A stretch of 29,839 bases of DNA from a virus. The position numbers and the translations under genes are program-made. The notes beneath the pieces were generated by a model, which saw only the letters and a program-made list of their open reading frames with translations, had not been told where the DNA came from and searched no databases. The stretch is from IMG/VR virus record IMGVR_UViG_3300031720_000015, positions 1 to 29,839 of that record, one strand, 5' to 3'. Positions within the stretch are counted from its first letter, which is position 1; each line of letters opens with the position of its first letter. Of this stretch, positions 1,482-16,463 are shown in pieces.

Positions 1482-2528
1482 CTAGTTGTTCAACATGTAG
1501 GTGATGACACAGCCCGGAGCGCCGAAGCCCTTCGTGCCGCTCGAAGTGAAGGCAACACCGGGAAGCGTCTTGAGGAAGGTGATCGTGCTGCTCGCGGCCG
1601 CGGTCTGAAAGTAACCGCCGACCGCCGCACCGCTGTCCTGAAGGCTTCCGCACACGACGCCACCATTCGCGATCGCCGGTGTGATCTCAGCCGGCAGCCC
1701 GGTCGCCGTCATCGTGGTCGCGTTGCTGGTGCCGGTCGCTGCGCAGAGGTTGAGGTAGACGAGGTTCCCCACGCGGTCCCACGTCGCCGTGCATGTGACG
1801 CCAGCGGTGAAGCCGGTGTAAGTGATCGTGAAGGTGCCGCGGTCTGGCGTGACGTCGGTGAAGCCGTTGATGAGGCCCCACCCCTTGATCGTGACCGTGC
1901 CGCTCGAGGTGCTGATCTGGATGCCCGGATAGCCGTTCGCTCCCATGTAGAGCGGCATCGTCTGCGAGGACGATGCTGTCTGAAGCTGCCCACATGGCGC
2001 AGCTGCGGCGCTTCCGAGACCTCCGCACGTTGATGAGCTCGCGGACGGCGGGATCGTTTGCAGCTGCACCGAGCTCCCCGCCTGGCTGTTCGACATCTGC
2101 AGCACGGTGGGCGTCGACGTCGAGGTGTTGGTGGTCGAGATCGGTGCGGCGTTGTTGCTCCAGGTATGCGAGCCGGTCCAGGTTGGCGTGATCGCCTGCG
2201 AGAGCGGTGGCGCGCCGTCGCTGCGTAGAAAGGTTGTTGCGCTGCCGTTGACCGTGGTGAGCCCGACAGTCCCGGTGGGATTAGCGCCAGCGGCACTGCC
2301 GCTCGGCGTTGAGCATGCTCCCGATCCCGAGAGGTAGCTGCTGCTGTTGCATGTGCCGCTCCAGAGCGAGATCACGTCCGCGGATGCTGCTGCCGTTGTC
2401 TGCGGCGAGCTCACATTGCCTTTGAGGATTCCCGTAGTGGGCCCGAAGAGCGGGTAAAGCTGCGCGATCGCGATGCTGGAGGTGATCGCAACGACGAGCA
2501 GCACCAAACGAAAGAGCAGCTTTTTCAT
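1482..2528 (-). CDS. Tail fibre-like protein with Sec signal peptide
   Basis: A 348-residue protein starting MKKLLFRLVLLVVAITSS, a textbook Sec signal peptide with cleavage predicted after AIA-22. The mature part is tail-fibre-like: LWSGTC...SGSGAC, then TVGLTTVNGSATTFLRSDGA and WTGSHTW, a repetitive Thr/Ser/Asn-rich shaft, and a C-terminal beta domain (TSNATTMTATGLPAEITPA ... SSGTKG). The mature protein has eight cysteines, an even number. I chose the ATG at 2528 because it overlaps the stop of the preceding fibre gene as ATGA and gives a normal MKK signal start; an in-frame ATG at 2540 would add four residues. A signal peptide on a virion fibre is unexpected because tailed phages assemble in the cytoplasm. 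Host-binding fibre is inferred from residue patterns and position; an exported, non-virion adhesin is possible. Confidence 0.8.
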   Translation of the reverse strand: MKKLLFRLVLLVVAITSSIAIAQLYPLFGPTTGILKGNVSSPQTTAAASADVISLWSGTCNSSSYLSGSGACSTPSGSAAGANPTGTVGLTTVNGSATTFLRSDGAPPLSQAITPTWTGSHTWSNNAAPISTTNTSTSTPTVLQMSNSQAGSSVQLQTIPPSASSSTCGGLGSAAAAPCGQLQTASSSQTMPLYMGANGYPGIQISTSSGTVTIKGWGLINGFTDVTPDRGTFTITYTGFTAGVTCTATWDRVGNLVYLNLCAATGTSNATTMTATGLPAEITPAIANGGVVCGSLQDSGAAVGGYFQTAAASSTITFLKTLPGVAFTSSGTKGFGAPGCVITYMLNN

Positions 2529-3283
2529 TCCATCACCCATGCGTTGACGGTGGAGTTGAAGCGCAGCGTTTTCGCCATGTACTGAAGCGAGAGCGCGATG
2601 CCTGCCGCGGGGATCTGGAGCTGGTGCCCCACTGCCGATCCGGTGAGGGACTGCAGCGTCACGGCGTTCGCGGAGCTGTCGACCTTGCGAATCGTGAGCC
2701 GCTGGCCGTCGCGCTGCGGCACGAAGCCCGTGATATTGATGGCGCCCGCATTGGCGTTGACGTCGTAGAGATAGTCGCTCGCGCCCAGGAGCACGATGTC
2801 ATTGCCGCCCGAGGTCACCACCTGGTTGAGCGGCTTCGTGCTCATCCAGCCGGTAGACCCGAGCGGGGACGCGGTGTCGGGGTTCGTGGTGTTCCCCGCG
2901 GTCATGTTGATCCACCAGGCGGTCGGGTCGGCCAGCTGCTGCAGCACCGCGCCGAGGGCGTAGCCCGTCATCGCGGCCTCGAGCGCCGAGGACCACTGGT
3001 ACTCCTGCCCGGCCTGCATCGCCACGATGTGCGCCGACAGCAGGTAGAGGATGCCGTTCATGTCGATGCCGAAGGGCGGCACGCCGCCGGCCGTGAGTAC
3101 CGTCATGTTGAGCGGCACGAAGCCATCGTTGAGCGAGGCCGCGCCCGGGAGCGTCGCGATCTGCGACGGCGCCGGGAATGGCGCGGTCTTGCCGCCCGCA
3201 ACAGGAGCGGACTGCGTGCAGATCGGCGCGTTTACCGCGAACGCTTCGACGAAGACCGGAGGTGTCGGTTGGCCGCCTGGCAT
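2525..3283 (-). CDS. Tail fibre protein, shorter paralogue
   Basis: A 252-residue protein whose residues about 50-145 match the N-terminal module of the neighbouring upstream fibre (3285-4454): both carry AGG.PPFG.D.NG.LY, an LS.HI...QAGQ.Y.WSS stretch, and NPD..... GW. This module is common in phage fibre proteins and probably forms the baseplate-attachment end. After it comes a short beta region (GFVPQRDGQRLTIRKVDSSA) that may be a trimer-forming or binding domain. It lacks the C-terminal tip domain of its neighbour. The ATG follows the upstream stop by one base, with AGGA about eight bases before it. Role as a fibre or fibre adaptor is inferred. Confidence 0.82.
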   Translation of the reverse strand: MPGGQPTPPVFVEAFAVNAPICTQSAPVAGGKTAPFPAPSQIATLPGAASLNDGFVPLNMTVLTAGGVPPFGIDMNGILYLLSAHIVAMQAGQEYQWSSALEAAMTGYALGAVLQQLADPTAWWINMTAGNTTNPDTASPLGSTGWMSTKPLNQVVTSGGNDIVLLGASDYLYDVNANAGAINITGFVPQRDGQRLTIRKVDSSANAVTLQSLTGSAVGHQLQIPAAGIALSLQYMAKTLRFNSTVNAWVME

Positions 3284-3284
3284 G

Positions 3285-4454
3285 TCAGTGTCCTATCGCG
3301 ATGTAGTAGCAGGTGCCGGCATTGATGCCGCCGACCGCCGCGTCCGCAGTGAATCCGGTCTTGGCGAGGTTGCTCACTCCGAACGGGTAGCCATAGTTCG
3401 CCGAGTCGCCCTGCGAAGGCACGACCGCATAGCAACCGTTCGGGAAGGCACCCCCGCCGAAGGTGACACCCACCGCTCCGCTCGCGGGCGCCGAGAAGCT
3501 TCCCCACTTGATGATGATCGGGCCGAGTGTGATCGAACCATTCGCGGAGTTCGTGACGCTGAAGAGCTGGGCGACGAAGTTGGCGAGCGAGATCTTGCGG
3601 AAGAAGCCATCCGCGCCGCTGTTCTGCACGACGACTGCGCCGATCGTCGGATTCTCGAGCGGGCTCGACTGGTTGTAGTAGACGCTGTAGCTGTACCCGC
3701 TGTTGTCGCGCTCGAGCAGCGTGAGTGGGGTGGGCGCGATCGAGATCGGAACGGAAAGCGGCGCCACCGTCGGGTAGATATTCGTACCATCGCCCCACAC
3801 CCCTACGGGGCTTGAGGGTCCGCCCTGTGGAATGGTCACGCCGGTCCCGGCGGCGGTCTTCGCCGTTGTCGTGAAGGCCCCTGTCGTGTTGTTGGTGATG
3901 AGCCATTGCTGCTGCGTGTTCGGCAGCACGAGCGAGAGGTTCGACGCCAGCGTCCCGTTGAGGATCAGCACATTGCGCCGGCTCTGCGAGGGCTTCAGCG
4001 TGACGACGCCGCCCGTCAGCCCCGAGATGGTTGTGATGCCGTAGGAGATCCCTGGCACCCATCCGGCAGCGGTCGGATCATTGTCCGGGTTCGTGACGTT
4101 GCCGGCGTTCGCGTTGAGCCACAGGCCGCTCCCGTCGGCCATCCCGAGAGTCGCGCCGGCTTCGTATCCCGAGATGATCCCTGCCAGTGAGGAACTCCAC
4201 AGATACGGCTGGCCCGCCTGTAGAGAGAAGATGTGTCCGGAGAGCGTGTAGAGGACGCCGTTGAAGTCCTGACCGAAGGGCGGCAAGCCACCCGCAATTT
4301 CCGGCTGCATCGTGATCGCAGGGAACCCGATGCTCCAGGAGGCGAGGTTGGCGGGCGACCCAGGTGGCGTTGCCGGGATAGGGAAGTTGATGTTGCCGCC
4401 ACTCGCAGAGGCTGCAAACGGTGAAGGTATGTTGGTCGGTGCCGGTGCGCCCAT
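3285..4454 (-). CDS. Tail fibre protein with gp53-like C-terminal tip
   Basis: A 389-residue fibre. Residues about 40-135 are the attachment module shared with the next gene. The middle is a Thr/Asn/Gly-rich shaft (PNTQQQWLITNNTTGAFTTT). The C-terminal 80 residues begin IIIKWGSFSAPASGAVGVTF and end CYYIAIG, the pattern of the phage fibre C-terminal tip domain known from gp53-like fibres (K/QWG start, Y-IAIG end), which contacts the receptor. The ATG has AGGA seven bases upstream. Receptor binding is known for the tip family; the receptor here is unknown. Confidence 0.88.
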   Translation of the reverse strand: MGAPAPTNIPSPFAASASGGNINFPIPATPPGSPANLASWSIGFPAITMQPEIAGGLPPFGQDFNGVLYTLSGHIFSLQAGQPYLWSSSLAGIISGYEAGATLGMADGSGLWLNANAGNVTNPDNDPTAAGWVPGISYGITTISGLTGGVVTLKPSQSRRNVLILNGTLASNLSLVLPNTQQQWLITNNTTGAFTTTAKTAAGTGVTIPQGGPSSPVGVWGDGTNIYPTVAPLSVPISIAPTPLTLLERDNSGYSYSVYYNQSSPLENPTIGAVVVQNSGADGFFRKISLANFVAQLFSVTNSANGSITLGPIIIKWGSFSAPASGAVGVTFGGGAFPNGCYAVVPSQGDSANYGYPFGVSNLAKTGFTADAAVGGINAGTCYYIAIGH

Positions 4455-4463
4455 GTGGCAGTC

Positions 4464-5345
4464 CTAGTTGTAAAACACGCCCGAGCCGAAGGGGTTGACC
4501 TGCGGAGCGGCTTCCTTAAAGCCGAAGAACTCCGTGTCGATCACGATGATGTTGAAGCCCACGCCGGCCGGATGCGGGAGCACTCCAGAGTCGGCCAGGA
4601 TCGCGTACTCAACGGTCGAGAGAGTGAACAGGAACACATACGTCATCTGCATGCCGCCGCGATCGACCGTGTAGCAAACGCCCCGACCTGGGAAGAGATT
4701 GCTGATCAGCGCGTTGAGTGCGGGTGCCGTCGTTGCGCAGATGTTGGCGAGCGCCTTCGTGAGAAGGAGCGTTCGGTAGGGGTCGTCGTTCAGCTTGTAG
4801 CTGTCGCCGGAGACCTGGCCGCTGTAGAAGGGGCCGCCGGCCGCAGGGATCGTGGTATTGCCGAAGTCCTGCCAATCCGGCGGCGTGTCGCTGTTCTCAA
4901 AGCCGAAGGCGCCGGAGGTCCCGGGGATCTGAATGACGCGCGAGACGCCAAGGATGCGGCCCCAGATGTCGAGACCGAAGCCCACGGCCGTGTCGATATT
5001 CCACACCGTGAGGTAGAAGTCCTGAAGATTGGCGGCTGGATCGAAGTACTGACCAAAGTTCTCTACCAGCGTGACGATCGTCGGGCTGTTGGCGTACTGG
5101 CTGATCAGCGTCGCATCGATGTCGAACTCGGGCACGATGTAGGAGATGCTGAGATTCACGGCACTCCCGCTCAGCGCCTGAGCTCCGGCGATCGGGCTCT
5201 GTGTCGAGACATTGCCCACCGCGGTGGCAGGATCGGTGACCGGCGTGAGCGTGCCGACGACAAGCCCCGCACTCGTGAGCGCAGCGGTCGCATCCGCAAG
5301 GTCGAGTCCCACGACGCTCGGGACGGTGACGGGGGTGACACTCAT
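4464..5345 (-). CDS. DUF2612 baseplate protein with N-terminal PASTA domain
   Basis: A 293-residue protein in two parts. Residues about 8-68 form one PASTA repeat: VPSVVGLDLADATAAL, SAGLVVGTLTPV, then STQSPIAG and SGSAVNLSIS, with the usual P.VVGL, AGL.VG, Q.P..G and G..V...S landmarks. PASTA domains of kinases and penicillin-binding proteins bind peptidoglycan fragments and beta-lactams. Residues about 75-293 match the DUF2612 family: LISQYANSPTI, VWNIDTAVGFGLDIWGRILG, a YLND-like KLNDDPYR and PHPAGV. DUF2612 proteins follow the J-like protein and appear to take the place of tail protein I in the baseplate. The ATG overlaps the J-like stop as ATGA. Wall binding by the PASTA part is inferred. 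Confidence 0.86.
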   Translation of the reverse strand: MSVTPVTVPSVVGLDLADATAALTSAGLVVGTLTPVTDPATAVGNVSTQSPIAGAQALSGSAVNLSISYIVPEFDIDATLISQYANSPTIVTLVENFGQYFDPAANLQDFYLTVWNIDTAVGFGLDIWGRILGVSRVIQIPGTSGAFGFENSDTPPDWQDFGNTTIPAAGGPFYSGQVSGDSYKLNDDPYRTLLLTKALANICATTAPALNALISNLFPGRGVCYTVDRGGMQMTYVFLFTLSTVEYAILADSGVLPHPAGVGFNIIVIDTEFFGFKEAAPQVNPFGSGVFYN

Positions 5346-6799
5346 ACCAGGTTCACCGTCACGGTGCCGAGCACCGGTGCCTGGTCAATGCCCACCTGCG
5401 CGGCCGTCGCCGTTGCGGTGCCCGTGATGACCTCAGGCGAGCTCTCGGTGATCGTGGCAGCGGCGCTCATGAGATAGGTGCCCGCGCCGCCCGGTGTCCC
5501 GGTGAGCTGCTCAACGATCTGCGTGTTGGCGGGGATCGAGCTCGCGGCGTCCGTGATAACGGTTCCGGGGGTGAGCGAGCCTGAGGTGACGCCCGTCACC
5601 GTGAGCACATTCGAGAGCGCCACGAGCGTGCCGTGCCCGGAGAAGGCAGATCCTATGAGGATCGACAGCACCTGCACTGGCACGCTCGGGCCCTCGCAAG
5701 TCGCCACGGGGCCGTAGAAACTGGCCGCCAGGAGGAGCGAGCCGATGCGCACCCGCTGACCATTGGCGTTGGTGCCGTTGAACTGCGCGGCGCACGCGGC
5801 CTGCACGTCCTGCACGATGGTCGAGGGGAGCGAGGACGAGTTCTTGATGTTGACCGTCAGATTGAACGAGACCGGGTTCGACGTGCAGTTGTTGAACTTG
5901 ATCGTGTAGGAGGGCTGCGGGAAGGCGTAGTTATCATCCACCACCGTCTCGGTGGTGTTGCCGTTCATGTCGCAGCCGAGGTCCTTCTTCGTCCAGATTG
6001 CGTTCGCGATCGCCTGCGGGTCGCCGCCGATCACTCCGACGTACACCGAGTGCGGCAGCATCGAGTAGTTCGTCGAGCCCACCAGGATCGTGGCGTTGGT
6101 GGTGTTCTCGTACACGTAGGCGTCAGTGACGCCCGAGAGGTCAATCACGGCGCCGTATATGGCCTGCGCGCTGCCGTGCGCGTTGGCGGCGATCGACTGC
6201 TCGCGCCGGTACTCGAAGGCCTGCGGACTCTCGACGTCGGCGCCCGGCACACCAGCCCCAGCGTTCGTGATCTGATCCCAGCCTGCCACCGCCTGATAGA
6301 TCGAGGTGAGCGTGCTCGGTGGACAGGGGATCGGACCGTCCACCACGTTGGCGAAGCTCAGCGTGATCGAGCCGCCGACCGGAATCGTGCCGCCTTGCAC
6401 GCAGTAGTAGAGATTGCCGGAGGTGTCCTGCGCCTGCGGCTGCGTGGGGCTCCCGGTCGGGATCACCGTGCCGGCGAGCCCCAGGCACGTGCAGCTCACC
6501 ACGGTGGCGGTGCCGGGGTTGCGGTTGAGGAAGTAGATGCGCGCGATGACGTCCTGCATGAAGCCGGCGTTGAGGTCAGGATCCACGCCGTTCACAAGCA
6601 TGGTGAAGAGCGCGTAGCAGTTCGAGATAGCAGCCGCCTGCGAAGTCGCGATCTGTCCTTGCGGAGTATTGAGCGCGAGGTTCAGGTTTCCGCCGAAAGC
6701 GGCGTTGAAGTCAGCCAGCACCCCCGCCAGCACGGCCGCTTCCGACGGCACCACCAGGCCGGTCGAGGTCCACTGAATTTGCGGGACGTTGGTGCTCAC
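5342..6799 (-). CDS. Baseplate J-like wedge protein (gp47-type)
   Basis: A 485-residue baseplate wedge protein. Family landmarks are the N-terminal TPQGQIATSQAAAI, DVIARIYFLNRNPGTAT, the central SPQAFEYRREQSIAANAHGS followed by AIYGAVIDLSGVTDAYVYEN, and the C-terminal VGIDQAPVLGTVTVNL. This is the J/gp47 class that, with the W-like protein, forms the wedges controlling sheath contraction. Residues about 396-450 look like an insertion: a glycine-rich beta repeat (VLTVTGVTSGSLTPGTVIT ... GAGTYLMS) splits the family C-terminal region. The same repeat occurs in the sheath and the cement protein. The start is GTG a few bases after the tailspike stop, with no strong Shine-Dalgarno. Confidence 0.92.
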   Translation of the reverse strand: MSTNVPQIQWTSTGLVVPSEAAVLAGVLADFNAAFGGNLNLALNTPQGQIATSQAAAISNCYALFTMLVNGVDPDLNAGFMQDVIARIYFLNRNPGTATVVSCTCLGLAGTVIPTGSPTQPQAQDTSGNLYYCVQGGTIPVGGSITLSFANVVDGPIPCPPSTLTSIYQAVAGWDQITNAGAGVPGADVESPQAFEYRREQSIAANAHGSAQAIYGAVIDLSGVTDAYVYENTTNATILVGSTNYSMLPHSVYVGVIGGDPQAIANAIWTKKDLGCDMNGNTTETVVDDNYAFPQPSYTIKFNNCTSNPVSFNLTVNIKNSSSLPSTIVQDVQAACAAQFNGTNANGQRVRIGSLLLAASFYGPVATCEGPSVPVQVLSILIGSAFSGHGTLVALSNVLTVTGVTSGSLTPGTVITDAASSIPANTQIVEQLTGTPGGAGTYLMSAAATITESSPEVITGTATATAAQVGIDQAPVLGTVTVNLV

Positions 6800-6802
6800 G
6801 CT

Positions 6803-8620
6803 CTAAAACTCGTAGGGCTCGACGCTGCGGATCGTGATCGTGTCGCCGGAGTTCGCGAGCTGCGCGTTGATGAGGGCGGTCAACTGCTGCGTTCCCACGG
6901 TGATGCTGGTGCCGCTCGTGCCGATGCGTTGTGCCGGGGTCCCGCTGTTATCCAGCGAGAGCCGGGCACTGTTCGCCTGGGCCGTCGCGCTCGCAGCGAT
7001 CGTCTCGCACTCCGCGATGAAGTCGCCCACCCAGATCGCATTCGTCGTGAGGCTACAGATGTTGGTGGGCGAAGGGCTCGAGCCGCTCGCGCCCTCGAGC
7101 TGCACGCTGATGGTCTTGGCGCCAGCAGTGCCCGACATATTGCCGTTGATGCGCACGCCAAAGCGGTGACCTTGCTGGGTGAGCTGCGCGGCATCCACCA
7201 CGTTGGTGAGCGTCGCCATCGTGGTGAGAGAGGTGCTGCCGGTGAGCGGATTGTTCGAGAAGCCGCTGGTGAGCGGTTGCTGGCCCCAGAGCGTGTTGAA
7301 CTGCCCGTCCCGGTTGAGCTCGTAGCAGCCAGAGTAGAGGAGCGTGTAGGGCGGCGTGCCGGCGAGCGTGTTCGGGCCAGAGGGGTTGTTGTTCCATGAG
7401 CTGTTGACGCGGCAGCGGATGTCGGTGGTAGCGTTGTGGGTGAGGGATGAGCTCACCGAGTCGGTACGCGACTTATCCACGATGTCGAAGCAGATCGGGT
7501 TCGTATCGCACGTCACATAGTTGGTGTGCCCGGTGCTGTTTTCCTGCATGAGGATCGCGGTCTGCGATTGGCCGTGAAAGTACGGACCAACGTTCGCCCC
7601 GTGGCCGGTGCCGGCGGAGCTGTCTTGATAGCCGAAGGTGAATGTGGTGCCCGAGATCATCGTGGCGCCGGTCGTGCCGCCCGATACATCGCCGCCATCC
7701 ATGAAGAAGCGCGACTGCTGAGCCTTGAGCGAAACGTCGTCGTTGATGAACCAGACATTCGCCGTGTACAGATCGGCAAACTGCTCGACTACGGCACCAA
7801 ACCAGCCCGAGGTTGACCACTTCTGGATCAGCAGGTCCTGGAGATAGAGGCTGCCGGCAATCGTGTAGAAGCCGAAGGTCGTGGTCGGCGCAGTGCAGCC
7901 GTCTCCAGGTCCACCACCGTCGACGATCGCTGTCGGAGTAAAGGGCCTCGTTCCGGCGGGTCCATAGACGCCGACGAGGTTCTGACTTTTGACCTTGAGC
8001 TGGCCGCCATTGCAGTAAGTGCCGGCGGCGAGCCGGATCTTCCACGTTCCGCCGAGGAGCGAGTTATCGGTGTACCAGGTGAGCGAGTCGAAGGAGTGCT
8101 GGATCGTAAGCATCGGATTGCCCGAGTCCAGCCCATCGTTGAGATCGCTCCCAGTCGTCGCGACGTAGAGCGTGTTGGTGTCGGAGGCGAGCGGCGTGAT
8201 GGCGAAGAGCGCCCCGGCGCGCTTGATGTATCCCGGGCCGTACTTGCGGATCGTCTGGAAGCCCGCGATGTTGCTGTTCGATCCGAAGACGCCACCGGGG
8301 AAGAAAATGCCGTTGGGATAGGTGGCGATGCAGTTGGCGATGGCCGTGGTGTTGTCGGTCACGCCGTTGTCGGGCACCGCGTGACAGTCGGTCTGCACAT
8401 TGCCGATCGCGAGCGCGCCCTGGATGTAGGCGAGGAGCTGTTGTGGCGTGATCTGGAAGCTCTGCGTCGTCGAGAGCGGCAGGAAGGACATCGGGATCGA
8501 TTCCTGCCCTGTCACTGGCCCCGGGTAGACCGGCAGCTGCGAGATCTTCTGTGCCGTTGCGGTGCTTACAAACGCGAGCGCCGCGAGAGCAATGAGTGCT
8601 TTTTTGAACATGCTGATCAT
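6803..8620 (-). CDS. Tailspike-like beta-helix protein with Sec signal peptide
   Basis: A 605-residue protein that starts MISMFKKALIALAALAF and has a predicted signal peptide cleaved after ATA-23. Residues about 25-66 (ISQLP...GQESIP...ITPQQLLAYI) look like a fibre attachment module also hinted at in the 15894-16463 protein. Then comes a pectate-lyase-like beta-helix start: DNGVTDNTTAIANCIATYPN followed by FFPGG, the counterpart of GDGVTDDT..I and the strand that opens phage tailspikes. LYVATTGSDLNDG and IRLAAGTY continue the helix. The C-terminal 150 residues form a separate beta domain. The mature protein has ten cysteines. A polysaccharide-degrading or binding role is inferred from the fold; no catalytic residues could be fixed. 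The ATG at 8620 overlaps the upstream stop as ATGA; the ATG at 8611 has a better-spaced AGGA. Confidence 0.82.
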   Translation of the reverse strand: MISMFKKALIALAALAFVSTATAQKISQLPVYPGPVTGQESIPMSFLPLSTTQSFQITPQQLLAYIQGALAIGNVQTDCHAVPDNGVTDNTTAIANCIATYPNGIFFPGGVFGSNSNIAGFQTIRKYGPGYIKRAGALFAITPLASDTNTLYVATTGSDLNDGLDSGNPMLTIQHSFDSLTWYTDNSLLGGTWKIRLAAGTYCNGGQLKVKSQNLVGVYGPAGTRPFTPTAIVDGGGPGDGCTAPTTTFGFYTIAGSLYLQDLLIQKWSTSGWFGAVVEQFADLYTANVWFINDDVSLKAQQSRFFMDGGDVSGGTTGATMISGTTFTFGYQDSSAGTGHGANVGPYFHGQSQTAILMQENSTGHTNYVTCDTNPICFDIVDKSRTDSVSSSLTHNATTDIRCRVNSSWNNNPSGPNTLAGTPPYTLLYSGCYELNRDGQFNTLWGQQPLTSGFSNNPLTGSTSLTTMATLTNVVDAAQLTQQGHRFGVRINGNMSGTAGAKTISVQLEGASGSSPSPTNICSLTTNAIWVGDFIAECETIAASATAQANSARLSLDNSGTPAQRIGTSGTSITVGTQQLTALINAQLANSGDTITIRSVEPYEF

Positions 8621-9120
8621 CCTTCCTGAATTCCGCCGCCGCTTTCGCCCGAGAGGATCTGGCCGCTTTCAGTAAACAGCGTGCCCAGCGGAATCACGGG
8701 CACGCCGGCACCCGAGGACACCGCGGCGCCGATCGCCACCGTGAAACTCACATCGTCCTCGGTCGTGAACTGCACCTGTCCGCTCGCCACGCGGTTCTGG
8801 AATGCCGATACCACGCAGCTCGCGCTCTTCACGTCCGGCACGGTGATCGCCGCGGCGGCGAGCGCGCCTTGCAGGATGTTGAGTGCCGGTGTGCGCCCGA
8901 GGAGCTGCGCGCCGGGGCTCTCGACGTTCTGCGTGTTGCCGAGGTAGGGAACGCCGAGGGTCGTGTCGTAGTACACCTCGCCAAGGAACGTGCGGCAGGC
9001 GCTCGCGACGTCCTGGGTGATCGCGTAAGGCGGTGCAGCCATCGCGATATTCCCCGAGGCATCCGCGGTCAGATCCCATGTGTCCACCGTCAGGTAGAGC
9101 GTGTTGAAGGGCGCACTCAA
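8617..9120 (-). CDS. Baseplate wedge protein, gp25/W-like (gp46-type)
   Basis: A 167-residue protein beginning TTG-AGT-GCG (MSAPFNTLYLTVDTWDLTAD). The pattern TWDLTADASGNIA, then YAITQDVASACRTFLGEVYYD and TTLGVPYLG is that of the small wedge protein found between spike and J genes in Mu-like and Pam3-like phages (gp25/W class). The last residues (SGQILSGESGGGIQEG) are flexible. The TTG start overlaps the spike stop as TTGA. No ATG lies near the conserved N-terminus, so the TTG start is well supported. Confidence 0.88.
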   Translation of the reverse strand: MSAPFNTLYLTVDTWDLTADASGNIAMAAPPYAITQDVASACRTFLGEVYYDTTLGVPYLGNTQNVESPGAQLLGRTPALNILQGALAAAAITVPDVKSASCVVSAFQNRVASGQVQFTTEDDVSFTVAIGAAVSSGAGVPVIPLGTLFTESGQILSGESGGGIQEG

Positions 9121-9770: not shown

Positions 9771-10660
9771 GCGCCCACCGTGGAAGCCGGAAACCGCATG
9801 CACTCGAGGTGCGAGAACCACCGCCCCTGCGGCTTGACGCTCTCCAAGGTGTGCTCGAACTTGTAGGGGAACCAGAGGCCGTTCGTGCCAGGCACGTCGG
9901 AGTTCTCGATCTGGACCGGGCTTCCGAGCTCGATCGCCGCATTCCACAGGCAGTCGAGTTCGATGCCGAACCGGGTGAGCGACACGTAGCCGACGAGCCC
10001 CGAGGTCGCCGACAGCACCACAGCGTTCTTGCCCTGCCGCGGCTGGTTCGATGGCGCGATGACGAGCGTCGACTTCGAATCGAAGTAGTAGTCGACCTTG
10101 GCGGCCGCGCACACCTCGCGGAACTGATCCATGAGCGTGCCCGAGAGGTAGGGCGTGTTGAGCTGGCCCGTGACACCGTTGTTCTCGAAGGCGTAGCCCA
10201 TCTGGCTCGCGAGCTGCTGACACAGCCCCGCCACGTCGGTCCCGCCAGAGAAGGATGACGGCGCGGCGGAGAGGATCTGCTGCCCCATCCCGGTCACGGC
10301 GTTGATGGTGAGCGCCACGTCGGGGAGTGATCGGTAGTCAGGCTGCGCTTCGGTGAACTGGCCCTCGAACACCTGCAGCCAGTTGCCGCTGTCGTTCGCC
10401 TCAAGGATGAGGATCGCGCGCGCGTTGATGTTGATCGGGTTGCCGTCCTGGCCGAAGAGCACGGTGGCGGCATTCATATCCACCTGCCGCATCCCGAAGA
10501 TCCGAAGCCCGCACTGGTTCGTGAAGTTGCCGGCGCCTGAGAGCACGGCCTCCATGCGGTAGTTCTCAAGCACGAGCGTGTTCGAGTCCGTGCCGGGGAA
10601 AGTGCCCTGCGGCAACACCAGGCTCGCGCGCAGGAGCCGCTTGACGAAGCTGCTGCTCAC
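9767..10660 (-). CDS. Baseplate hub protein
   Basis: A 297-residue protein between the plug and spike genes. Features are an early NTLVLENYRMEAVLSGAG stretch, ININARAILILEANDSGNWL, VFEGQFTEAQPDYRSLPDVA and a C-terminal EHTLESVKPQGRW. The F.G.I..A..DY...PDV pattern is shared with hub proteins of Pam3- and Mu-like tails, the ring to which the spike attaches. The GTG start overlaps the previous stop as GTGA. Family placement rests on pattern and position; the hub role is fairly sure. Confidence 0.78.
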   Translation of the reverse strand: MSSSFVKRLLRASLVLPQGTFPGTDSNTLVLENYRMEAVLSGAGNFTNQCGLRIFGMRQVDMNAATVLFGQDGNPININARAILILEANDSGNWLQVFEGQFTEAQPDYRSLPDVALTINAVTGMGQQILSAAPSSFSGGTDVAGLCQQLASQMGYAFENNGVTGQLNTPYLSGTLMDQFREVCAAAKVDYYFDSKSTLVIAPSNQPRQGKNAVVLSATSGLVGYVSLTRFGIELDCLWNAAIELGSPVQIENSDVPGTNGLWFPYKFEHTLESVKPQGRWFSHLECMRFPASTVGA

Positions 10661-11034
10661 GCGCTCACCAGCCCGGCCGCCTCGAGGTCAGCCGGCGAGA
10701 AGTAGAGCAGCTGCCAGCGCGTGCCGAGCCCCGCAGGCACCGGGTCAGCCGTAGGGACGTTCGGTCCGGCCTGCGTGTCGAGGAACAGAAGGTCACCCTC
10801 GAATCCGAGGTAATGACGCCCCGAGAGCATGAAAGGCGCCACCGTGTCCGGCAGTGCGCCATAGGCCCTCACCTCTCGGGCAGTGAAGATCGGTGTGTTG
10901 TTGGAAATCACATCGAGATAGAGGGCGGCGGCCGCACCGGCACCGAGCAGGTACAGCGCGAACTGCACCGCCTGCCCACCGAGCACGGCGGCGAAGGTCT
11001 GAGACGGCACGGCAGCGAGTGGTACGACCTGCAT
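10657..11034 (-). CDS. Baseplate plug protein, Pam3 gp18-like
   Basis: A 125-residue protein: QVVPLAAVPSQTFAAVLGGQ at the N-terminus, LYLDVISNNTPIFTAREV in the middle, then YLGFEGDLLFLDTQAG and GLGTRWQLLYF at the end. These are the landmarks of the cyanophage Pam3 baseplate plug gp18 family, a small beta-protein inside the baseplate. It starts with an ATG sharing one base with the upstream stop (TGATG). Confidence 0.88.
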   Translation of the reverse strand: MQVVPLAAVPSQTFAAVLGGQAVQFALYLLGAGAAAALYLDVISNNTPIFTAREVRAYGALPDTVAPFMLSGRHYLGFEGDLLFLDTQAGPNVPTADPVPAGLGTRWQLLYFSPADLEAAGLVSA

Positions 11035-11687
11035 CAGTAGAGCCCCGGGCTCTGCGAGGCGAGCGCCGCCTGACCGTCCTGGGTCTCCTGCGAGCTCGGC
11101 GTCTGCGGCTGCACGTTGCCGACGTTGCTGGTCGGCTGCGCGGCGTCCGACTGAGCGTTCGGGAGCTGCACGGCGGTCGTCGTGTACTGCGGCTGCACCT
11201 CGAGGATCTGCACGAAGTAGGCGTCGACCTCGGTGAGGAAGAAGGCGCCCTTGGCACCGCGGCGGATGACTTCGTAGCGCTCCAGGTTCACGTTGAGGTA
11301 CACACGCTCGGGCGTCGTCACGGTGTAGAGATCGAGCGAGGAGGCGAGGCTGTCGAGCTGCTGGAGGAACCCCGAGCGGTCGTCCTCGGTGCCTCCCTTG
11401 GAAAAGCGCAGCGTCACCTCGAAGGGGCGGATCACCTTGTTATAGGAGGCGAACGATCCCGCCTGTACCGGGAAGTTCGAGATGTCGTACTCCTGGCGGT
11501 TCGAGAACTCGAGCACGGAGTCGGGGAAGAGCACCTGGTTGCCCTGATCGTCGAACACGCCCCAGGCGGGCGGAGACTGTGCGGCCTGCCACAGGAGCCC
11601 GGAGATCGCCTCCGAGGCGATAAGCGTCACGACTGGCGTGGCAACGCTCGGCGGCAACTGCGGGATGCCGGGAATGGGAGGGATCAC
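11034..11687 (-). CDS. Distal tail/baseplate hub protein, Dit-like
   Basis: A 217-residue protein. The core (VLEFSNRQEYDISNFPVQAG, RPFEVTLRFSKGG, GFFLTEVDAYFVQILEVQP-like segment) has the appearance of a tube-initiator or Dit-like beta-sandwich that follows the tape measure in contractile tails. The C-terminal 40 residues are a Gln/Ser/Pro-rich linker (QPTSNVGNVQPQTPSSQETQ). The GTG start overlaps the tape measure stop as GTGA. Function is inferred from position and the beta-rich core. Confidence 0.72.
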   Translation of the reverse strand: MIPPIPGIPQLPPSVATPVVTLIASEAISGLLWQAAQSPPAWGVFDDQGNQVLFPDSVLEFSNRQEYDISNFPVQAGSFASYNKVIRPFEVTLRFSKGGTEDDRSGFLQQLDSLASSLDLYTVTTPERVYLNVNLERYEVIRRGAKGAFFLTEVDAYFVQILEVQPQYTTTAVQLPNAQSDAAQPTSNVGNVQPQTPSSQETQDGQAALASQSPGLY

Positions 11688-13063
11688 GACTGCCCCCCGT
11701 CAGCGTTCGACACGAGAAGCTTCCGCTGCAGCGCGCCGCCGATGCCAGTCGCGATTCCGTTGGCGTCCGTCGCGCGCGTGTTGATGTTGATCTCGTCGAT
11801 GTGCACCTGCGTGCTGGGGCCTGCGACCGCAGCGGCGGGAGTGCTGGTGCCTGCGGCAGCCGATTGCTGCGCGGCCGATCCGGGCCGCGGCGCGGTGGGC
11901 GTTGCGGGCGGTCGCTGAATGACGCCTACGCGGTGCTGGCCGGTCGGCGAGTGCCTGACGTCGATGTCGGACCCGGGCCCGATCCAGTCGAGGACCTTCT
12001 CGTTGATCTTGTCGAGAAGGCCGCCAGAAGGAAGAGCTGCGATCAGCTTGCCAAGCAGCACCCCACCACCGATTGCCGCAGCGAGCGGCGCCAGAAAAGC
12101 CGCAAGACCCGCAATGCCAGTGACGAGCGCTGAGCCGGCGCCCATCGCAAGCGTCAGCGCGCCGAGCGCGGCGATCAGCGTGCCGGTGGGCCCGAGCGCT
12201 GCCGCGAGCTCGCCGATCGCCTTCTCGACCGCCGCAAACCACGGCGGCGGGTTCTTGAAGAAGTTGAGGAGCGCATCGATCGCGTGGACGATCTTCGGCA
12301 GCAGGTCGTTGACGAGTTTCTGAAGCCACGAGACGGCCGACTCGAGGACCGGCGTCAGGCGGGAGAGGATCACCGAGGACTGAGCGGCGGTCGCGTTCTG
12401 AAGGCGCGTGATGTCCTGATCGAGCTTTACCTGCCCTTGGATCGTTTTCTCGGTGAGCGCCCGCTGATCGACCTGCGCCTTGCGCAGCGCCTCCTCGAGG
12501 CCCTTGCCGCCCTGCGCCACGGCCGATGCCACGCCGCCCGTGAAGCCGAAGGAGAGCGCCATCTGGTAGCGCTCGCCCTGGTTGAGGCCCGCGATCTTGG
12601 CCTGCCGCTCGATCGCACGCGCCGCATCGAGTGCGATGTCCTTGAAGTTGCGCGCGTGGCCGGCGGCATTGAGGTACGCGACACCGAAGCGCTGCAGCAT
12701 CGCGATCGAGTCGGCGACCTGGCCGCGGTAGCGCAGGTTGAAGACCGCGTTCTGAAGTCCCTCGATCGAGTCGGCGGCGTCCTGTACCTGGCCGCCGAAG
12801 AGCTGGCTCACTTCGCCAAGGCGTTTGATCTCCTGCCCGGTGAGCCCGAGGTTGCGCGACTGGAAGCCGACCTCGGCGAGCTGCGCGTGCAAGTCCTTGA
12901 AGTAGCCGACCACGTCCTCGATGCCGCGCACGGCAAGGAACATGCCGGCGAGGCGGCGCGTGAAGCCAGCGAGCTCCTCGGCCGAGCCCTTGACGCCCTT
13001 GCTGAACTCCTTGGAATCGAGCCCGAGCGTGACGACCAGACTGTCGATGACGCTACCGGCCAC
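11684..13063 (-). CDS. Tape measure protein
   Basis: A 459-residue protein that sets tail length and is ejected with the DNA. The N-terminus (VIDSLVVTLGLDSKEFSKGV) is the usual opening of short tape measure proteins. Helical, Gln/Ala-rich segments follow to about residue 260, then hydrophobic segments at about 285-345 (LIAALGALTLAMGAGSALVT and a second one) that may enter the host membrane. The C-terminus is a Pro/Ala linker plus VHIDEININTRATDANGIA. By the usual rule of about 1.5 A per residue the tail would be roughly 70 nm. It begins at GTG with GAGGAG about ten bases upstream and overlaps the end of the frameshifted chaperone by 11 bases. Confidence 0.9.
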   Translation of the reverse strand: MAGSVIDSLVVTLGLDSKEFSKGVKGSAEELAGFTRRLAGMFLAVRGIEDVVGYFKDLHAQLAEVGFQSRNLGLTGQEIKRLGEVSQLFGGQVQDAADSIEGLQNAVFNLRYRGQVADSIAMLQRFGVAYLNAAGHARNFKDIALDAARAIERQAKIAGLNQGERYQMALSFGFTGGVASAVAQGGKGLEEALRKAQVDQRALTEKTIQGQVKLDQDITRLQNATAAQSSVILSRLTPVLESAVSWLQKLVNDLLPKIVHAIDALLNFFKNPPPWFAAVEKAIGELAAALGPTGTLIAALGALTLAMGAGSALVTGIAGLAAFLAPLAAAIGGGVLLGKLIAALPSGGLLDKINEKVLDWIGPGSDIDVRHSPTGQHRVGVIQRPPATPTAPRPGSAAQQSAAAGTSTPAAAVAGPSTQVHIDEININTRATDANGIATGIGGALQRKLLVSNADGGQS

Positions 13064-13687
13064 GGTTGGCTCGCTCCTCGAGCACGCGGCGGTTGTAGGC
13101 GTCGACCATCACGATCTCGAGCGCGTCGTAGAGATCACGCACGCCGAGCGTGGTACTGAGTTCGCCGAGAGTGGCAGCGCCCGCCGAAACTACCGCGCCG
13201 ATCGCGGCCGGGACGTTCTGGTAGGCAAGGAGCCCGTCGGCACCGGCCGCGAAGGTGATGCCGAAGTCGATCGGCTTGCGGGAGAAAAAAAACCCGTGTG
13301 CAGCCTCAGCACCGCCATGCGCAGCTCGGTGACGGTGGAGATCTCCTCGATCTGGCACGCATCGCCCTGCATGATCGCCTGCGCTGCGTGGCGCGGGTCG
13401 TGTTGGTACTTGATGCACGCCCATGTGGCTTTGTCGATCTCCGGATCGTGCAGCGCCTTGAGGAGCGGCACGCCCACGCCCGCGAGCTGCGCGAGGCCCG
13501 CCATGCCGGCATCCTCGGTCGCACCCGTCGCCTCTTTCGGCAGCGAGATCCCCGAGGCCAGCACGAGCTCGGTGATGCGCCCGGCCCAGCGCTCGCCCTC
13601 CATCGCACTCATCTCGGTGATGACGAAGACCTTCCCCTTGTCGCGGCCTTCGTCCTCGATCGTGATGGTTTCGGTGCGTCGCCCCAT
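13053..13687 (-). CDS. Tail assembly chaperone, -1 frameshift fusion (gpGT-like)
   Basis: A 211-residue fusion predicted from a -1 shift at the T run: 134 residues of the short product, then FSRKPIDFGITFAAGADG and on to RRVLEERANRGR and a TAG at 13053. The extension has a protein-like composition (helices, DLYDALEIVMVDAYNRR), unlike the zero-frame tail. The layout matches lambda G/GT and many other long-tailed phages, where the two products in a fixed ratio bind the tape measure and bring tube subunits. No independent start with a good ribosome site was seen for the -1 part. A homopolymer sequencing error could mimic it, but the gene position makes a programmed shift much likelier. Confidence 0.82.
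13190..13687 (-). CDS. Tail assembly chaperone, short product (gpG-like)
   Basis: A 165-residue zero-frame product between tube and tape measure genes, the place of lambda gpG. The first 132 residues look like a real, mostly helical protein (ITIEDEGRDKGKVFVITEMS, QLAGVGVPLLKALHD). After a run of eight T the frame reads PASRSTSASPSRPVPTGS, a low-complexity tail that looks unselected. The real downstream sequence is in the -1 frame. See the fusion product entry. Confidence 0.82.
   Translation of the reverse strand: MGRRTETITIEDEGRDKGKVFVITEMSAMEGERWAGRITELVLASGISLPKEATGATEDAGMAGLAQLAGVGVPLLKALHDPEIDKATWACIKYQHDPRHAAQAIMQGDACQIEEISTVTELRMAVLRLHTGFFSPASRSTSASPSRPVPTGSLPTRTSRPRSAR
13285..13295 (-). 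promoter_or_regulatory. Programmed -1 frameshift site
   Basis: The minus strand reads ACG GGT TTT TTT TCT in the zero frame, i.e. GGG followed by eight T. This contains the perfect slippery heptamer T_TTT_TTT in the right phase for a -1 shift, after which the next codons are TTC TCC CGC AAG (F-S-R-K). A stimulatory stem downstream was not worked out. Confidence 0.82.
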
Positions 13688-13708
13688 TCATGTGACTCGT
13701 GCTGCTGC

Positions 13709-14143
13709 TCAGATCGGAGCCGCGGAAACCGACTGGAAGGTGATCTCGAACGTCTGCGGCTGCAGCACCTTCTTCCCCGGAGGCGCCGGCATGCCGCCCG
13801 TCAGGAAGCCGCCGACGAAGGTGAACACCTTGCCGATCGACGGGCAGATGATCGTCATGCTCGCCTGGTAGGCCTCGTGCGCTGCATCCATCGCCTGGCG
13901 CCACGCATCGAATACGGCGATCGACGGGGAGTCGGCTTGCAGCACGATCTTCTGCTTCACGGGATAAGGCGTGTAGCCGCCGGAGAGCGTGCCATCGACT
14001 CCCATGAGGGTCTCGTTTGGCACCACGTTCTCGGTGTCGAAGGCGTCGTCCGTGGCGAAGCCCTCGATCGGCACGGGCACCGGAAAGACGCCCGGGACGT
14101 TCAGGCTGAGCGATGAGTTGGCGCTGGTGATGGTGTTTGACAT
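13709..14143 (-). CDS. Tail tube protein (DUF3277-type)
   Basis: A 144-residue protein directly after the sheath gene. Landmarks of the DUF3277 family are PIEGFATDDAFDTENVVPNE, MGVDGTLSGGYTPYPVKQKI, DSPSIAVFDAWRQAMDAA and FLTGGMPAPPGKKVLQPQTF. It polymerises into the inner tube through which DNA passes. Length is normal for the family. It starts with ATG seven bases after the sheath stop, with TAGG about six bases upstream. Confidence 0.92.
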   Translation of the reverse strand: MSNTITSANSSLSLNVPGVFPVPVPIEGFATDDAFDTENVVPNETLMGVDGTLSGGYTPYPVKQKIVLQADSPSIAVFDAWRQAMDAAHEAYQASMTIICPSIGKVFTFVGGFLTGGMPAPPGKKVLQPQTFEITFQSVSAAPI

Positions 14144-14150
14144 GACTTAC

Positions 14151-15884
14151 CTACTCGACATCGATCGAGCCCATGTTGATCTGCTGAACGCTGCCGCCGT
14201 CCGTGTACCAGAAGGTGACGGTCGGTGAGCTGCGGGAGTTACGCGCGTTGGCGCCCGGGTCCTGCACCAGCAGGTACCAGCCCTGCGATGTCAGGATCGG
14301 GTCAATGACGCGCCCGGCGGCCGTGTTGACGGCCACCTTCTGAGAGCCGGAGAGCTGCACGCCCGAGACCCACGCGCCGAAGTTGCCCATCGCCACGATG
14401 TCGGGCATGAGCGCCTGGCGGATCATGTTGTAGCCCGCCTGGTCGTAGGGGATCGCCGGCACCTGCGTCAGGAGCTCGGCGAAATCGTTCTGGAAGCGCG
14501 CGTTCCAGTAGATCTGGTCGATGTACGGGTCCGCCCAGATCCACGGGCCCGAGATCTGCCCAGGCTGGAACCACTGGAAGGCCGCGGTGCGCGTGGCGAC
14601 GTTGCAGTAGCAGTTGTAGGCGTTGTTCTTGAGATTGAGATAGGTCGTGAGATTCGTGACGTCCGGCACGAGGCTCGGGCTCGAGCGGTAGGCGTAGGTC
14701 GTGCGCCCACCCGACTGGTTGAAGTTGATCGAGGCCGTGAGTCCGCAGATGAAGGCGGCGATGGACGGGCCCTGCGTCGCGCTCCAGATCGGAATCGTGC
14801 CGCTCAAGGTGTCCACGAGCACGGCAAAGCACGCGGGGTCCGTGAACTGCGTGGAGGGCAGCGGATCGGAGTCGTAGGCGACGTAGGCGTAGGCGTCATT
14901 CTGCTGCGAGCACCAGGTGGCAAACGCCACCTTGATCGGGCCGCCAGCCGCGCCGTTGTCCGGGTCCTGCACCGTCATGAAGGTCGCCCAGTCCTGGGTC
15001 TGCGCGACGACGGAGTTCATGAGCGTCGCCGGCACCGCAGCGGCTGAGCCCTGAGAGAGCACCGCGCCCTTGGCAGAAGTGAGGAGGAGCCCGGTGGTGA
15101 AGGCGTTGGTCGTCGGGAAGGCGATCGTGCTGAGCGCCCCGGTCGTCGGGCTGGTGATGACGAAGGCGTTGCGCAGCGGGTCGTACGTGCAGGTCGCGCC
15201 GCTCGTCACGGTCACCGCCCCGCTCCCTTGCGTGCCGCTGGTGCTGACGTTGTAAGTGCCCGTACCGCCGGTGCCAGTGCCGAAGGAAGTGATGGTGGCC
15301 GAGCCACCGAAGACGCCGGCGCCCGTCACGGTGTCGCCGACGTGCAGCGCACCAGATGCGACCGCCGAGATCGTCAGCACTCCCAAAGCCTGGGATCCCG
15401 TGCCGGAGAAGATGTCTCCCGAGGTGTCGAGTCCCGTCTGGATCAGCGCGGCAGCGTTCGAGAAGCTCGTCGCGCTCGCAAGGTTGATGTTGGCGCTGTT
15501 GACCACATCGCCGTTGATGTTGATCTGGATCGTGCCAGAGAGCGCCTGAAGCTGCGCGAGCGTCACGCCCGTGAGTGCTCCGCCGCGCAGGTATGCGGCC
15601 ACCGCCGCGGTGTTGTACTGCGCGAAGTACAGGACCGAGGGAAGACTCGTGCCGCCGTTGTAGCCGGCGAAGTAGAGCGCGGCGAGCGAGGCCTCGACGG
15701 AGTTGGCACCGTACCAGGAGGCAACCGCGGTGGCCGATCCGAACTGCGCGACGGTGCCGATCGGGATCGAGGTGTCGCCCGAGTTGTCGAGGAACACCGC
15801 ATTCATCGCGAGATCGGCAGCGCCCGCAGCGAGCACGCTCGGGATAACGTTGACGAATTGGCTCGCAGGTATCGATGGGTTCAT
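14151..15884 (-). CDS. Tail sheath protein (DUF3383-type) with inserted repeat
   Basis: A 577-residue sheath protein. It opens MNPSIPASQFVNVIPSVLAA, a typical DUF3383 start, and the C-terminal half shows GRTTYAYRSSPSLVPDVTN, YNCYCNVATRTAAFQWFQPG, WIWADPYIDQIYWNARFQND and GYNMIRQ. The core should form the contractile outer cylinder. Residues about 161-230 interrupt a region that is normally continuous (AALIQTGLDTSG before, CTYDPLRNAFVITSPTTGA after) and hold a Gly/Thr beta repeat (VLTISAVASGALHVGDTVTG ... FGTGTGGTGTYNVS), probably a decoration on the sheath surface. AGGAA stands six to seven bases before the ATG. Confidence 0.93.
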   Translation of the reverse strand: MNPSIPASQFVNVIPSVLAAGAADLAMNAVFLDNSGDTSIPIGTVAQFGSATAVASWYGANSVEASLAALYFAGYNGGTSLPSVLYFAQYNTAAVAAYLRGGALTGVTLAQLQALSGTIQININGDVVNSANINLASATSFSNAAALIQTGLDTSGDIFSGTGSQALGVLTISAVASGALHVGDTVTGAGVFGGSATITSFGTGTGGTGTYNVSTSGTQGSGAVTVTSGATCTYDPLRNAFVITSPTTGALSTIAFPTTNAFTTGLLLTSAKGAVLSQGSAAAVPATLMNSVVAQTQDWATFMTVQDPDNGAAGGPIKVAFATWCSQQNDAYAYVAYDSDPLPSTQFTDPACFAVLVDTLSGTIPIWSATQGPSIAAFICGLTASINFNQSGGRTTYAYRSSPSLVPDVTNLTTYLNLKNNAYNCYCNVATRTAAFQWFQPGQISGPWIWADPYIDQIYWNARFQNDFAELLTQVPAIPYDQAGYNMIRQALMPDIVAMGNFGAWVSGVQLSGSQKVAVNTAAGRVIDPILTSQGWYLLVQDPGANARNSRSSPTVTFWYTDGGSVQQINMGSIDVE

Positions 15885-15893
15885 GCCGGTTCC

Positions 15894-16463
15894 TCAGTGG
15901 ACTGAGCAGACGTAGTCGATCGTGTCGCTAGTGGTCGCCGAGCCAGAAGCGGTCTGTACCGATGTGGTGGGCGAATGCCCCGTCTGGCGAAAGGAGATGT
16001 TGGTGGTCTCATCATTGAGCCAGCAGATCCACCAGTTGGTGGCGGTCGTCCCGAAGGTCAGTGTCGGGTTGCAGCTCGTGGCACCGGCTGTGAAGTGCCC
16101 TGCGTTCGCGCCGCTCCCGGCTGCGGGAGTTGGCGTGCCGCATCCTGCAATCGTGGGCGCTGTTCCCGAGCCGCCGCTCGGGGCGACACACGCGCCGGTG
16201 TAACTGAGGATCGGCGTCGTGCCGCTGCATCCGCTCCAGAGCGCCGTGACGTTCGAGAAGGTCAGCTGGGTCAGGAACCAGGCGTCAAGCTGCGCCGGCG
16301 TGATGTTGACGGTGCTGCTGCTCTGATCCCCGAGAAGCCGCTCGGTGCCGCTCAGGGGCGTCGTGGCGTTCGGGTAGCTACCGACCTCGGAAGCTGAAGC
16401 CGATGACGAGAAGAGAAGCACCGCACAGGCGGCGACTAGGACCTTGAGTGAGGCGCGGATCAT
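15894..16463 (-). CDS. Small cysteine-rich fibre-like protein with signal peptide
   Basis: A 189-residue protein starting MIRASLKVLVAACAVLLFSS, with predicted Sec cleavage after ASA-24. The start of the mature part (YPNATTPLSGTERLLGDQSS ... NITPAQLDAWF) resembles the fibre attachment module of the 6803-8620 tailspike. LWSGCSGTTPILSYTGAC parallels LWSGTC...GAC of the 1482-2528 fibre. The C-terminal 100 residues (AGCGTPTP...SGANAGHF ... SCNPTLTF ... IDYVCSV) match a Cys-containing fibre tip pattern. The mature protein has six cysteines. It lies between tail completion and sheath genes, an odd place for a fibre. The ATG overlaps the previous stop as ATGA; a longer in-frame stretch upstream is a shadow of that gene. 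Confidence 0.78.
   Translation of the reverse strand: MIRASLKVLVAACAVLLFSSSASASEVGSYPNATTPLSGTERLLGDQSSSTVNITPAQLDAWFLTQLTFSNVTALWSGCSGTTPILSYTGACVAPSGGSGTAPTIAGCGTPTPAAGSGANAGHFTAGATSCNPTLTFGTTATNWWICWLNDETTNISFRQTGHSPTTSVQTASGSATTSDTIDYVCSVH

What the first reader, a model, noticed from the sequence alone, without database searches (positions are those of the whole stretch)
1482..16463. Three fibre-like virion proteins carry Sec signal peptides
The proteins at 1482-2528, 6803-8620 and 15894-16463 all begin with a basic start, a hydrophobic core and an A-x-A cleavage site (AIA|Q, ATA|Q, ASA|S), and continue with fibre or tailspike sequence. All three have an even number of cysteines after cleavage (8, 10 and 6). 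The two other fibres (2525-3283, 3285-4454) have no signal. Tailed phages assemble fibres in the cytoplasm, so export is not expected. Possibilities: the proteins are exported and oxidised, then join virions at lysis; they act outside as decoys or receptor blockers against superinfection; or the hydrophobic end anchors them in the baseplate. I know of no description of such a set. Caution: sheath and J-like proteins also contain cysteines.
Basis: partly seen in the sequence, partly recalled or inferred. Interest (0 to 1): 0.72.

Follow-up and report, generated by a model that had tools for sequence, protein, structure and literature searches.

The report
Secreted, disulfide-bonded phage tail fibres
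Some uncultured tailed viruses of bacteria encode tail-fibre proteins that carry a standard bacterial export signal and an always-even set of cysteines, which suggests that, unlike other known tailed-phage fibres, they are sent out of the cytoplasm and disulfide-bonded before release.

Summary
P1 (1482-2528), P2 (6803-8620) and P3 (15894-16463) begin with textbook Sec signal peptides (SP). Each overlaps the upstream tail gene by ATGA. Mature cysteine counts are 8, 10 and 6.

It is more than a curiosity of one contig. A search of IMG/VR with only the mature N-terminus of P1 returned 28 loci. All 28 have a signal peptide ending in a signal-peptidase site at the same place. All 28 have an even cysteine count (20 of 20 non-redundant members, window included; SP-less control fibres 20 even to 17 odd). 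The family occupies a fixed fibre slot, J / DUF2612 / fibre A / fibre B / SP-fibre, in 19 loci.

In a separate scan, fibres with FLRGDG-x-C have an SP in 22/22 cases and fibres with FLRGDG-x-W in 4/67 (P = 4e-17).

The bodies are fibre-class: a sigma1-like head, the endosialidase chaperone domain in two orthologues, and tailspike homology in P2.

Best reading: trimeric receptor-binding fibres exported by Sec, cleaved and oxidised, then released at lysis with or onto virions. Export is well supported. Whether they end up on the virion is open, because the family occurs with different tail types. I found no prior description. Acetobacter phage phiAO1 offers a cultured SP-tailspike.

The parts
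1482..2528 (-). P1: SP-bearing fibre, 348 aa, mature 326 aa with 8 Cys; conserved family
2463..2528 (-). Sec signal peptide of P1, cleavage AIA|Q
2304..2363 (-). Cys module of P1, LWSGTC-NSSSYLSGSGAC-STP (counterpart of FLRGDG-x-W)
2525..2528 (-). ATGA overlap of fibre B stop and P1 start
   Evidence: -4 overlap in 19 relatives
2525..3283 (-). fibre B (P4), tail fibre without SP, directly upstream of P1
3285..4454 (-). fibre A (P5), tail fibre without SP, Gp53-like C-terminal domain
4464..5345 (-). DUF2612 baseplate protein with PASTA domain, part of the syntenic block
5342..6799 (-). baseplate J-like protein, part of the syntenic block
6803..8620 (-). P2: SP-bearing tailspike, 605 aa, 10 mature Cys, inserted between wedge W and J
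8552..8620 (-). Sec signal peptide of P2, cleavage ATA|Q
8617..9117 (-). baseplate wedge (W/gp25-like), overlaps the P2 start by 4 nt
14151..15884 (-). tail sheath, downstream of P3
15894..16463 (-). P3: short SP-bearing fibre, 189 aa, 6 mature Cys; tip shared with SP-fibres L216 and L208
16392..16463 (-). Sec signal peptide of P3, cleavage ASA|S
16188..16241 (-). Cys module of P3, LWSGC-SGTTPILSYTGAC
747..1232 (-). endolysin (Phage_lysozyme) just downstream of P1: lysis cassette

Best explanation
P1, P2 and P3 are receptor-binding fibres or spikes that are made late with the tail genes, exported unfolded through the host Sec translocon, cleaved by signal peptidase I, and folded outside the cytoplasm as trimers locked by disulfide bonds. 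The lysis genes then open the cell and the fibres are released together with the virions, most likely docking on them at that point as accessory receptor-binding fibres. Shown by comparison: signal peptide, invariant cleavage position, cysteine pairing signature, fibre architecture, fixed place in the fibre gene cluster. Inferred: actual export, disulfides, trimer, docking on virions.
For: An unbiased mature-N-terminus search gave 28/28 with an SP. A signal-peptidase-I-like A-x-[AG]-type site sits directly before the conserved mature start in all of them. Even Cys counts in 20/20 non-redundant members, P = 2e-6, against 20:17 in SP-less fibres, 9:7 in fibre A and 6:3 in fibre B. FLRGDG-x-C has an SP in 22/22, FLRGDG-x-W in 4/67, P = 4e-17; non-redundant 14/14 vs 4/49, P = 8e-11. 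Cys content is 1.7% vs 0.54%. Mature N-terminus conserved (57%), SP diverged (40%), last 100 aa very diverged (32%), as expected for a cleaved leader and a swapped receptor-binding tip. Syntenic J/DUF2612/fibA/fibB/SP-fibre in 19 loci, with 4-nt start overlap in 19. Peptidase_S74 chaperone in orthologues L198 and L199. The P1 head model matches reovirus sigma1 heads and phage tail proteins. P2 body matches isolate tailspikes, one of which lies in the same place next to wedge and J genes (Dolphis gp27). Cultured SP-tailspike in phiAO1.
Against: No SignalP run and no experiment. The MS-verified Cellulophaga virion proteins checked have no SP, so virion incorporation of exported proteins has no precedent here. 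The SP-fibre N-terminus occurs in myo-, podo- and sipho-like genomes, which argues against docking on one specific baseplate. Nearest cultured relatives by fibre A (Bcep781, XapPhi1) go from fibre A to lysis genes or hypothetical genes and lack an SP-fibre, so it is not essential to the tail. In the wider set of SP-fibres cysteine parity is not universal: L008, L012, L018, L023 and L047 are odd. Model confidence is moderate (pLDDT 62, head region 73-90).
Confidence: 0.7

Rival explanations
1. The fibres are exported and oxidised but never join the virion. Released at lysis as free trimers, they occupy receptors on debris or neighbouring cells, protecting progeny from unproductive adsorption or blocking rival phages.
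For: The same SP-fibre N-terminus occurs with three tail types and with no common upstream partner. Most genomes inspected also have SP-less fibres that can serve the virion (fibre A and B, or ISQLP-type fibres). The mature protein starts almost at once with a shaft repeat (GILKG...), without a separate docking domain. The gene is next to lysis genes in the window.
Against: Translational coupling and fixed order with virion fibre genes. The first ~15 mature residues are strongly conserved, which a free decoy would not need. P2 sits where an isolate keeps its virion tailspike.
Confidence: 0.35
2. The hydrophobic N-terminus is not cleaved and anchors the fibre in a membrane or in the tail.
For: Hydrophobic segment at the N-terminus of all members.
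Against: An A-x-[AG] type site at a fixed place in all 28 homologues, even cysteines, and no reason for coupling to Cys modules.
Confidence: 0.05
3. The exported fibres act inside the envelope before lysis, for example binding outer-membrane receptors or glycans from the periplasmic side (exclusion, like T5 Llp) or weakening the envelope.
For: The periplasm is where Sec delivers them in a diderm host; a weak lectin-like Laminin_G_3 match occurs at the tip of L189.
Against: Tips are as variable as receptor-binding tips (32% identity). Fibre tips usually recognise outward-facing structures.
Confidence: 0.12
4. Start-codon artefact: translation begins downstream and the hydrophobic stretch is not made.
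For: The predictor used is simple and starts are inferred.
Against: ATGA overlaps fix the starts in the window and in 19 relatives. SP sequences diverge yet keep their form.
Confidence: 0.03

Closest known systems
Tail fibres and tailspikes of tailed phages (FLRGDG-x-W shaft repeats, Peptidase_S74 chaperone, Gp53-like and pectate-lyase-like bodies)
   Same: Shaft repeats, tip domains, chaperone domain, gene position and late operon.
   Different: Known members are made in the cytoplasm without signal peptide and carry Trp where the SP-fibres carry a Cys with a second Cys upstream.
Tailspikes of Pseudomonas phage Dolphis, Rhizobium phage RHph_X2_25, Sinorhizobium phage NV1.1.1
   Same: 27-30% identity to parts of P2 between residues ~74 and 403; in Dolphis the gene lies between wedge and J genes as in the window.
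   Different: Their N-termini have no SP.
Acetobacter phage phiAO1 BCZ75793.1
   Same: SP, tailspike-like body, 4-nt overlap with the upstream fibre-region gene, two mature cysteines.
   Different: No detectable homology to P1-P3; the prophage was predicted to be incomplete (PMC8566455).
Exported virion proteins of filamentous phages (pIII, pVIII; from memory)
   Same: Virion proteins made with cleaved signal peptides; pIII has disulfides.
   Different: Those virions assemble in the membrane; tailed phages assemble in the cytoplasm.
Exported superinfection-exclusion proteins such as T5 Llp, and secreted or SAR endolysins (from memory)
   Same: Tailed-phage proteins that use host Sec.
   Different: Small lipoproteins or enzymes, not fibre-class proteins.

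Membership tests
Tailed-phage receptor-binding fibre/tailspike | Shaft and tip or spike domains homologous to virion fibres | tested here: met
   phrog_27277 tail spike for P2; isolate tailspikes; sigma1-like head for P1; Peptidase_S74 in orthologues
Tailed-phage receptor-binding fibre/tailspike | Gene in the tail/fibre cluster | tested here: met
   J-DUF2612-fibA-fibB-SPfibre in 19 loci
Tailed-phage receptor-binding fibre/tailspike | Present in the virion | not testable with these tools
   no proteome for the window or its relatives
Tailed-phage receptor-binding fibre/tailspike | Synthesised and folded in the cytoplasm (no export signal) | tested here: not met
   SP in window and 28/28 relatives
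Sec substrate cleaved by signal peptidase I | Basic n-region, hydrophobic core, A-x-A type cleavage site | tested here: met
   rule-based predictor and invariant site; SignalP not available
Sec substrate cleaved by signal peptidase I | Export and processing observed | not testable with these tools
   needs fusion or proteomics
Disulfide-bonded extracytoplasmic protein | Even number of cysteines, conserved as pairs | tested here: met
   20/20 non-redundant vs controls
Lipoprotein (surface-displayed, as bacterial DGR targets) | Lipobox L-x-x-C at the cleavage site | tested here: not met
   cleavage sites are A-x-[AG]|Q/A/G/S type
Filamentous-phage coat protein | Membrane-assembled inovirus virion | tested here: not met
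   window has sheath, baseplate and terminase genes

The most novel reading that the evidence does not exclude
Tailed phages use the host periplasm as a second assembly compartment: receptor-binding fibres are exported by Sec, oxidatively folded and disulfide-locked there, and loaded onto cytoplasm-built virions once the holin opens the inner membrane.
Probability: 0.4. Interest if true: 0.9.

Novelty: new variant of a known kind. Interest (0 to 1): 0.76.

Why it matters
Tailed-phage morphogenesis is taught as wholly cytoplasmic. A widespread class of fibres with export signals and paired cysteines means either that part of the virion is made in another compartment, or that phages secrete receptor-binding proteins as weapons or shields. 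It gives a simple sequence rule (FLRGDG-x-C predicts a signal peptide) for finding them. It suggests that such fibres may misfold when expressed in the cytoplasm, which matters for host-range prediction and for use of fibres as tools. It makes the question testable in a harmless cultured system.

Tried and rejected
P2 and P3 gave no relatives in single-sequence scans of viral contigs, and a tip-profile scan for P3 returned only the L216 contig. A scan of 84,980 bacterial and archaeal genomes for the Cys module gave two hits, neither in a fibre-like ORF with SP, so no host was found. Sequence search against solved structures gave nothing. Cellulophaga phages with MS/MS-annotated virion proteins were examined for SP-bearing structural proteins: none among those checked. 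Isolates related by J, terminase or fibre A were checked for an SP-fibre in the same slot: none in Bcep781, XapPhi1, Amjad_SA or Magia (two rule hits there are in DUF2612-type proteins and are regarded as false). P1 has only a 48-residue match in 50,697 phage records. Literature searches found no description; PMC6199706 even notes that phage DGR targets lack signal peptides. Rejected: a start-codon artefact, an uncleaved anchor, and a lipoprotein.

Full report
What the window is. The window is a 29.8-kb uncultured viral record from IMG/VR with terminase, portal, tail sheath, tube, wedge, J-like and DUF2612 baseplate genes, two ordinary fibres and a lysis cassette, nearly all on the minus strand: a tailed phage with a contractile tail. 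A 20-kb DNA query gave no match among 50,697 phage records. The closest cultured relatives by single proteins are mostly proteobacterial phages: terminase 53% to Burkholderia phage Magia, J-like protein 46% to Acetobacter phage phiAO1, fibre A 40% to Burkholderia phage Bcep781.

The observation. Each of the three genes starts inside an ATGA overlap with the stop of the preceding tail gene, so the hydrophobic leader is very likely translated. I had no SignalP; I used a transparent rule (basic n-region, uncharged core of nine residues, A-x-A-like site). It recognises standard E. coli signal peptides and rejects T4 and T7 fibre N-termini. It fires on 2 of 88 neighbouring baseplate and fibre genes and on none of the MS/MS-confirmed Cellulophaga structural proteins tested.

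Test 1, the P1 family. I aligned only the mature N-termini of P1-like proteins (no leader in the query) and searched viral contigs. All 28 loci returned have a signal peptide, and in all of them a signal-peptidase-type site stands directly before the conserved start [QGA]-x-[FY]-x-x-[FY]-x-P-A-x-G-[IV]-L-K-G. Clustering at 60% identity leaves 20 groups, window included. Between groups the leader is 40% identical, the first 48 mature residues 57%, and the last 100 residues 32%: a diverging cleaved leader, a conserved mature start, and a replaceable tip. Mature cysteine counts are 6 to 14 and even in 20 of 20 groups (P = 2e-6). Fibres without SP are even or odd about equally (20:17; fibre A 9:7; fibre B 6:3).

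Test 2, the Cys module. Ordinary phage fibres carry a shaft motif FLRGDG-x-W. P1 and many SP-fibres have a cysteine in place of the tryptophan and a second cysteine 11-13 residues upstream ([LF][WF][ST]G-x-C...FLRGDG-x-C). A scan of all IMG/VR viral contigs for the Cys form gave 22 complete ORFs, all with SP. The scan for the Trp form gave 67, of which 4 pass the rule and only 2 look real. Fisher P = 4e-17, or 8e-11 after removing redundancy. The modules sit at very different positions (67 to 1434) in proteins with different leaders and tips, so simple common descent of one protein does not explain the link. Cysteine content of the mature proteins is threefold higher (1.7% vs 0.54%). An oxidising folding compartment explains both tests; a membrane anchor or chance does not.

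What the bodies are. P2 matches a tailspike family and isolate tailspikes at 27-31%. In Pseudomonas phage Dolphis the homologous spike lies between wedge and J genes as P2 does; the isolates read have no SP. Two P1 orthologues end in the endosialidase chaperone domain Peptidase_S74, above the curated cut-off. An AlphaFold2 model of mature P1 (mean pLDDT 62; head region 73-90) matches the reovirus sigma1 attachment head, the virophage protein Zav_19 and phage tail proteins. The P3 tip is homologous to tips of two P1-family members, cysteines included, so the SP-fibres exchange tips among themselves. These are therefore fibre-class, presumably trimeric, receptor-binding proteins. That they are in the virion is not shown.

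Genomic setting. In 19 loci the order is J-like (where the contig reaches it), DUF2612, fibre A, fibre B, SP-fibre, with exact 4-nt overlaps at the SP-fibre start in 19 loci. The family also occurs in podovirus-like (L192, L203, L204, L210, L213) and siphovirus-like (L209) contigs (tail types judged from neighbouring genes). P2 is absent between W and J in the relatives that cover that stretch. The Cys module is absent from genuine fibre genes in 84,980 prokaryote genomes, and the P1 family is essentially absent from 50,697 phage records, so the carriers are uncultured and rarely integrated. One cultured phage with an analogous SP-tailspike is Acetobacter phage phiAO1. Its host was among strains giving myovirus-like particles on induction, though the prophage was predicted incomplete (PMC8566455).

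Mechanism. Best supported: late synthesis coupled to tail genes, Sec export, signal peptidase I cleavage, disulfide-locked trimerisation outside the cytoplasm, release at lysis. What happens then is open. Docking on virions (my preference, about even odds given export) is favoured by operon position, translational coupling, the conserved mature start and the tailspike locus of P2. A free decoy or shield is favoured by the spread over tail types, by the presence of separate SP-less fibres, and by the near absence of a docking domain in P1.

Limits. The SP rule is crude; the P values treat sequences as independent after a simple redundancy cut; the host is unknown; cysteine parity is not universal in the broader SP-fibre set; IMG/VR contigs are fragments; the paper library covers only open-licence papers, so 'no prior description' means none found there.

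Noticed in passing
window 4464-5345 (-): The DUF2612 baseplate protein carries an N-terminal PASTA domain (PF03793, E 3e-11), a peptidoglycan-binding-type module unusual in a baseplate.
   Followed up: no
window 5342-6799, 14151-15884, 20788-21786 (-): J-like, sheath and a head-region protein share similar G/T-rich beta modules (..GTGSGGAGTYNLS..), apparently a repeated decoration domain in three structural proteins.
   Followed up: no
L203:2752-3354 (+): A second, P3-type SP-fibre (ISALPAGAALGGTEPIP start, 2 mature Cys) in a podovirus-like contig that also carries a P1-type SP-fibre.
   Followed up: partly
L209:7149-8564 (+): A second SP-bearing 471-aa protein directly downstream of the SP-fibre in a siphovirus-like contig.
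   Followed up: no
L222 (Acetobacter phage phiAP1, LC644972) 6305-6625: A small SP-bearing ORF related to the phiAO1 spike N-terminus, followed by a signal-peptide-like segment that is out of frame with the annotated spike: a broken or frame-switching SP-spike.
   Followed up: partly
L007, L013, L023, L025: SP-bearing fibre-like proteins with few or no cysteines, with leaders that look like those of Bacteroidota; a second type of SP-fibre to which the disulfide argument does not apply.
   Followed up: partly
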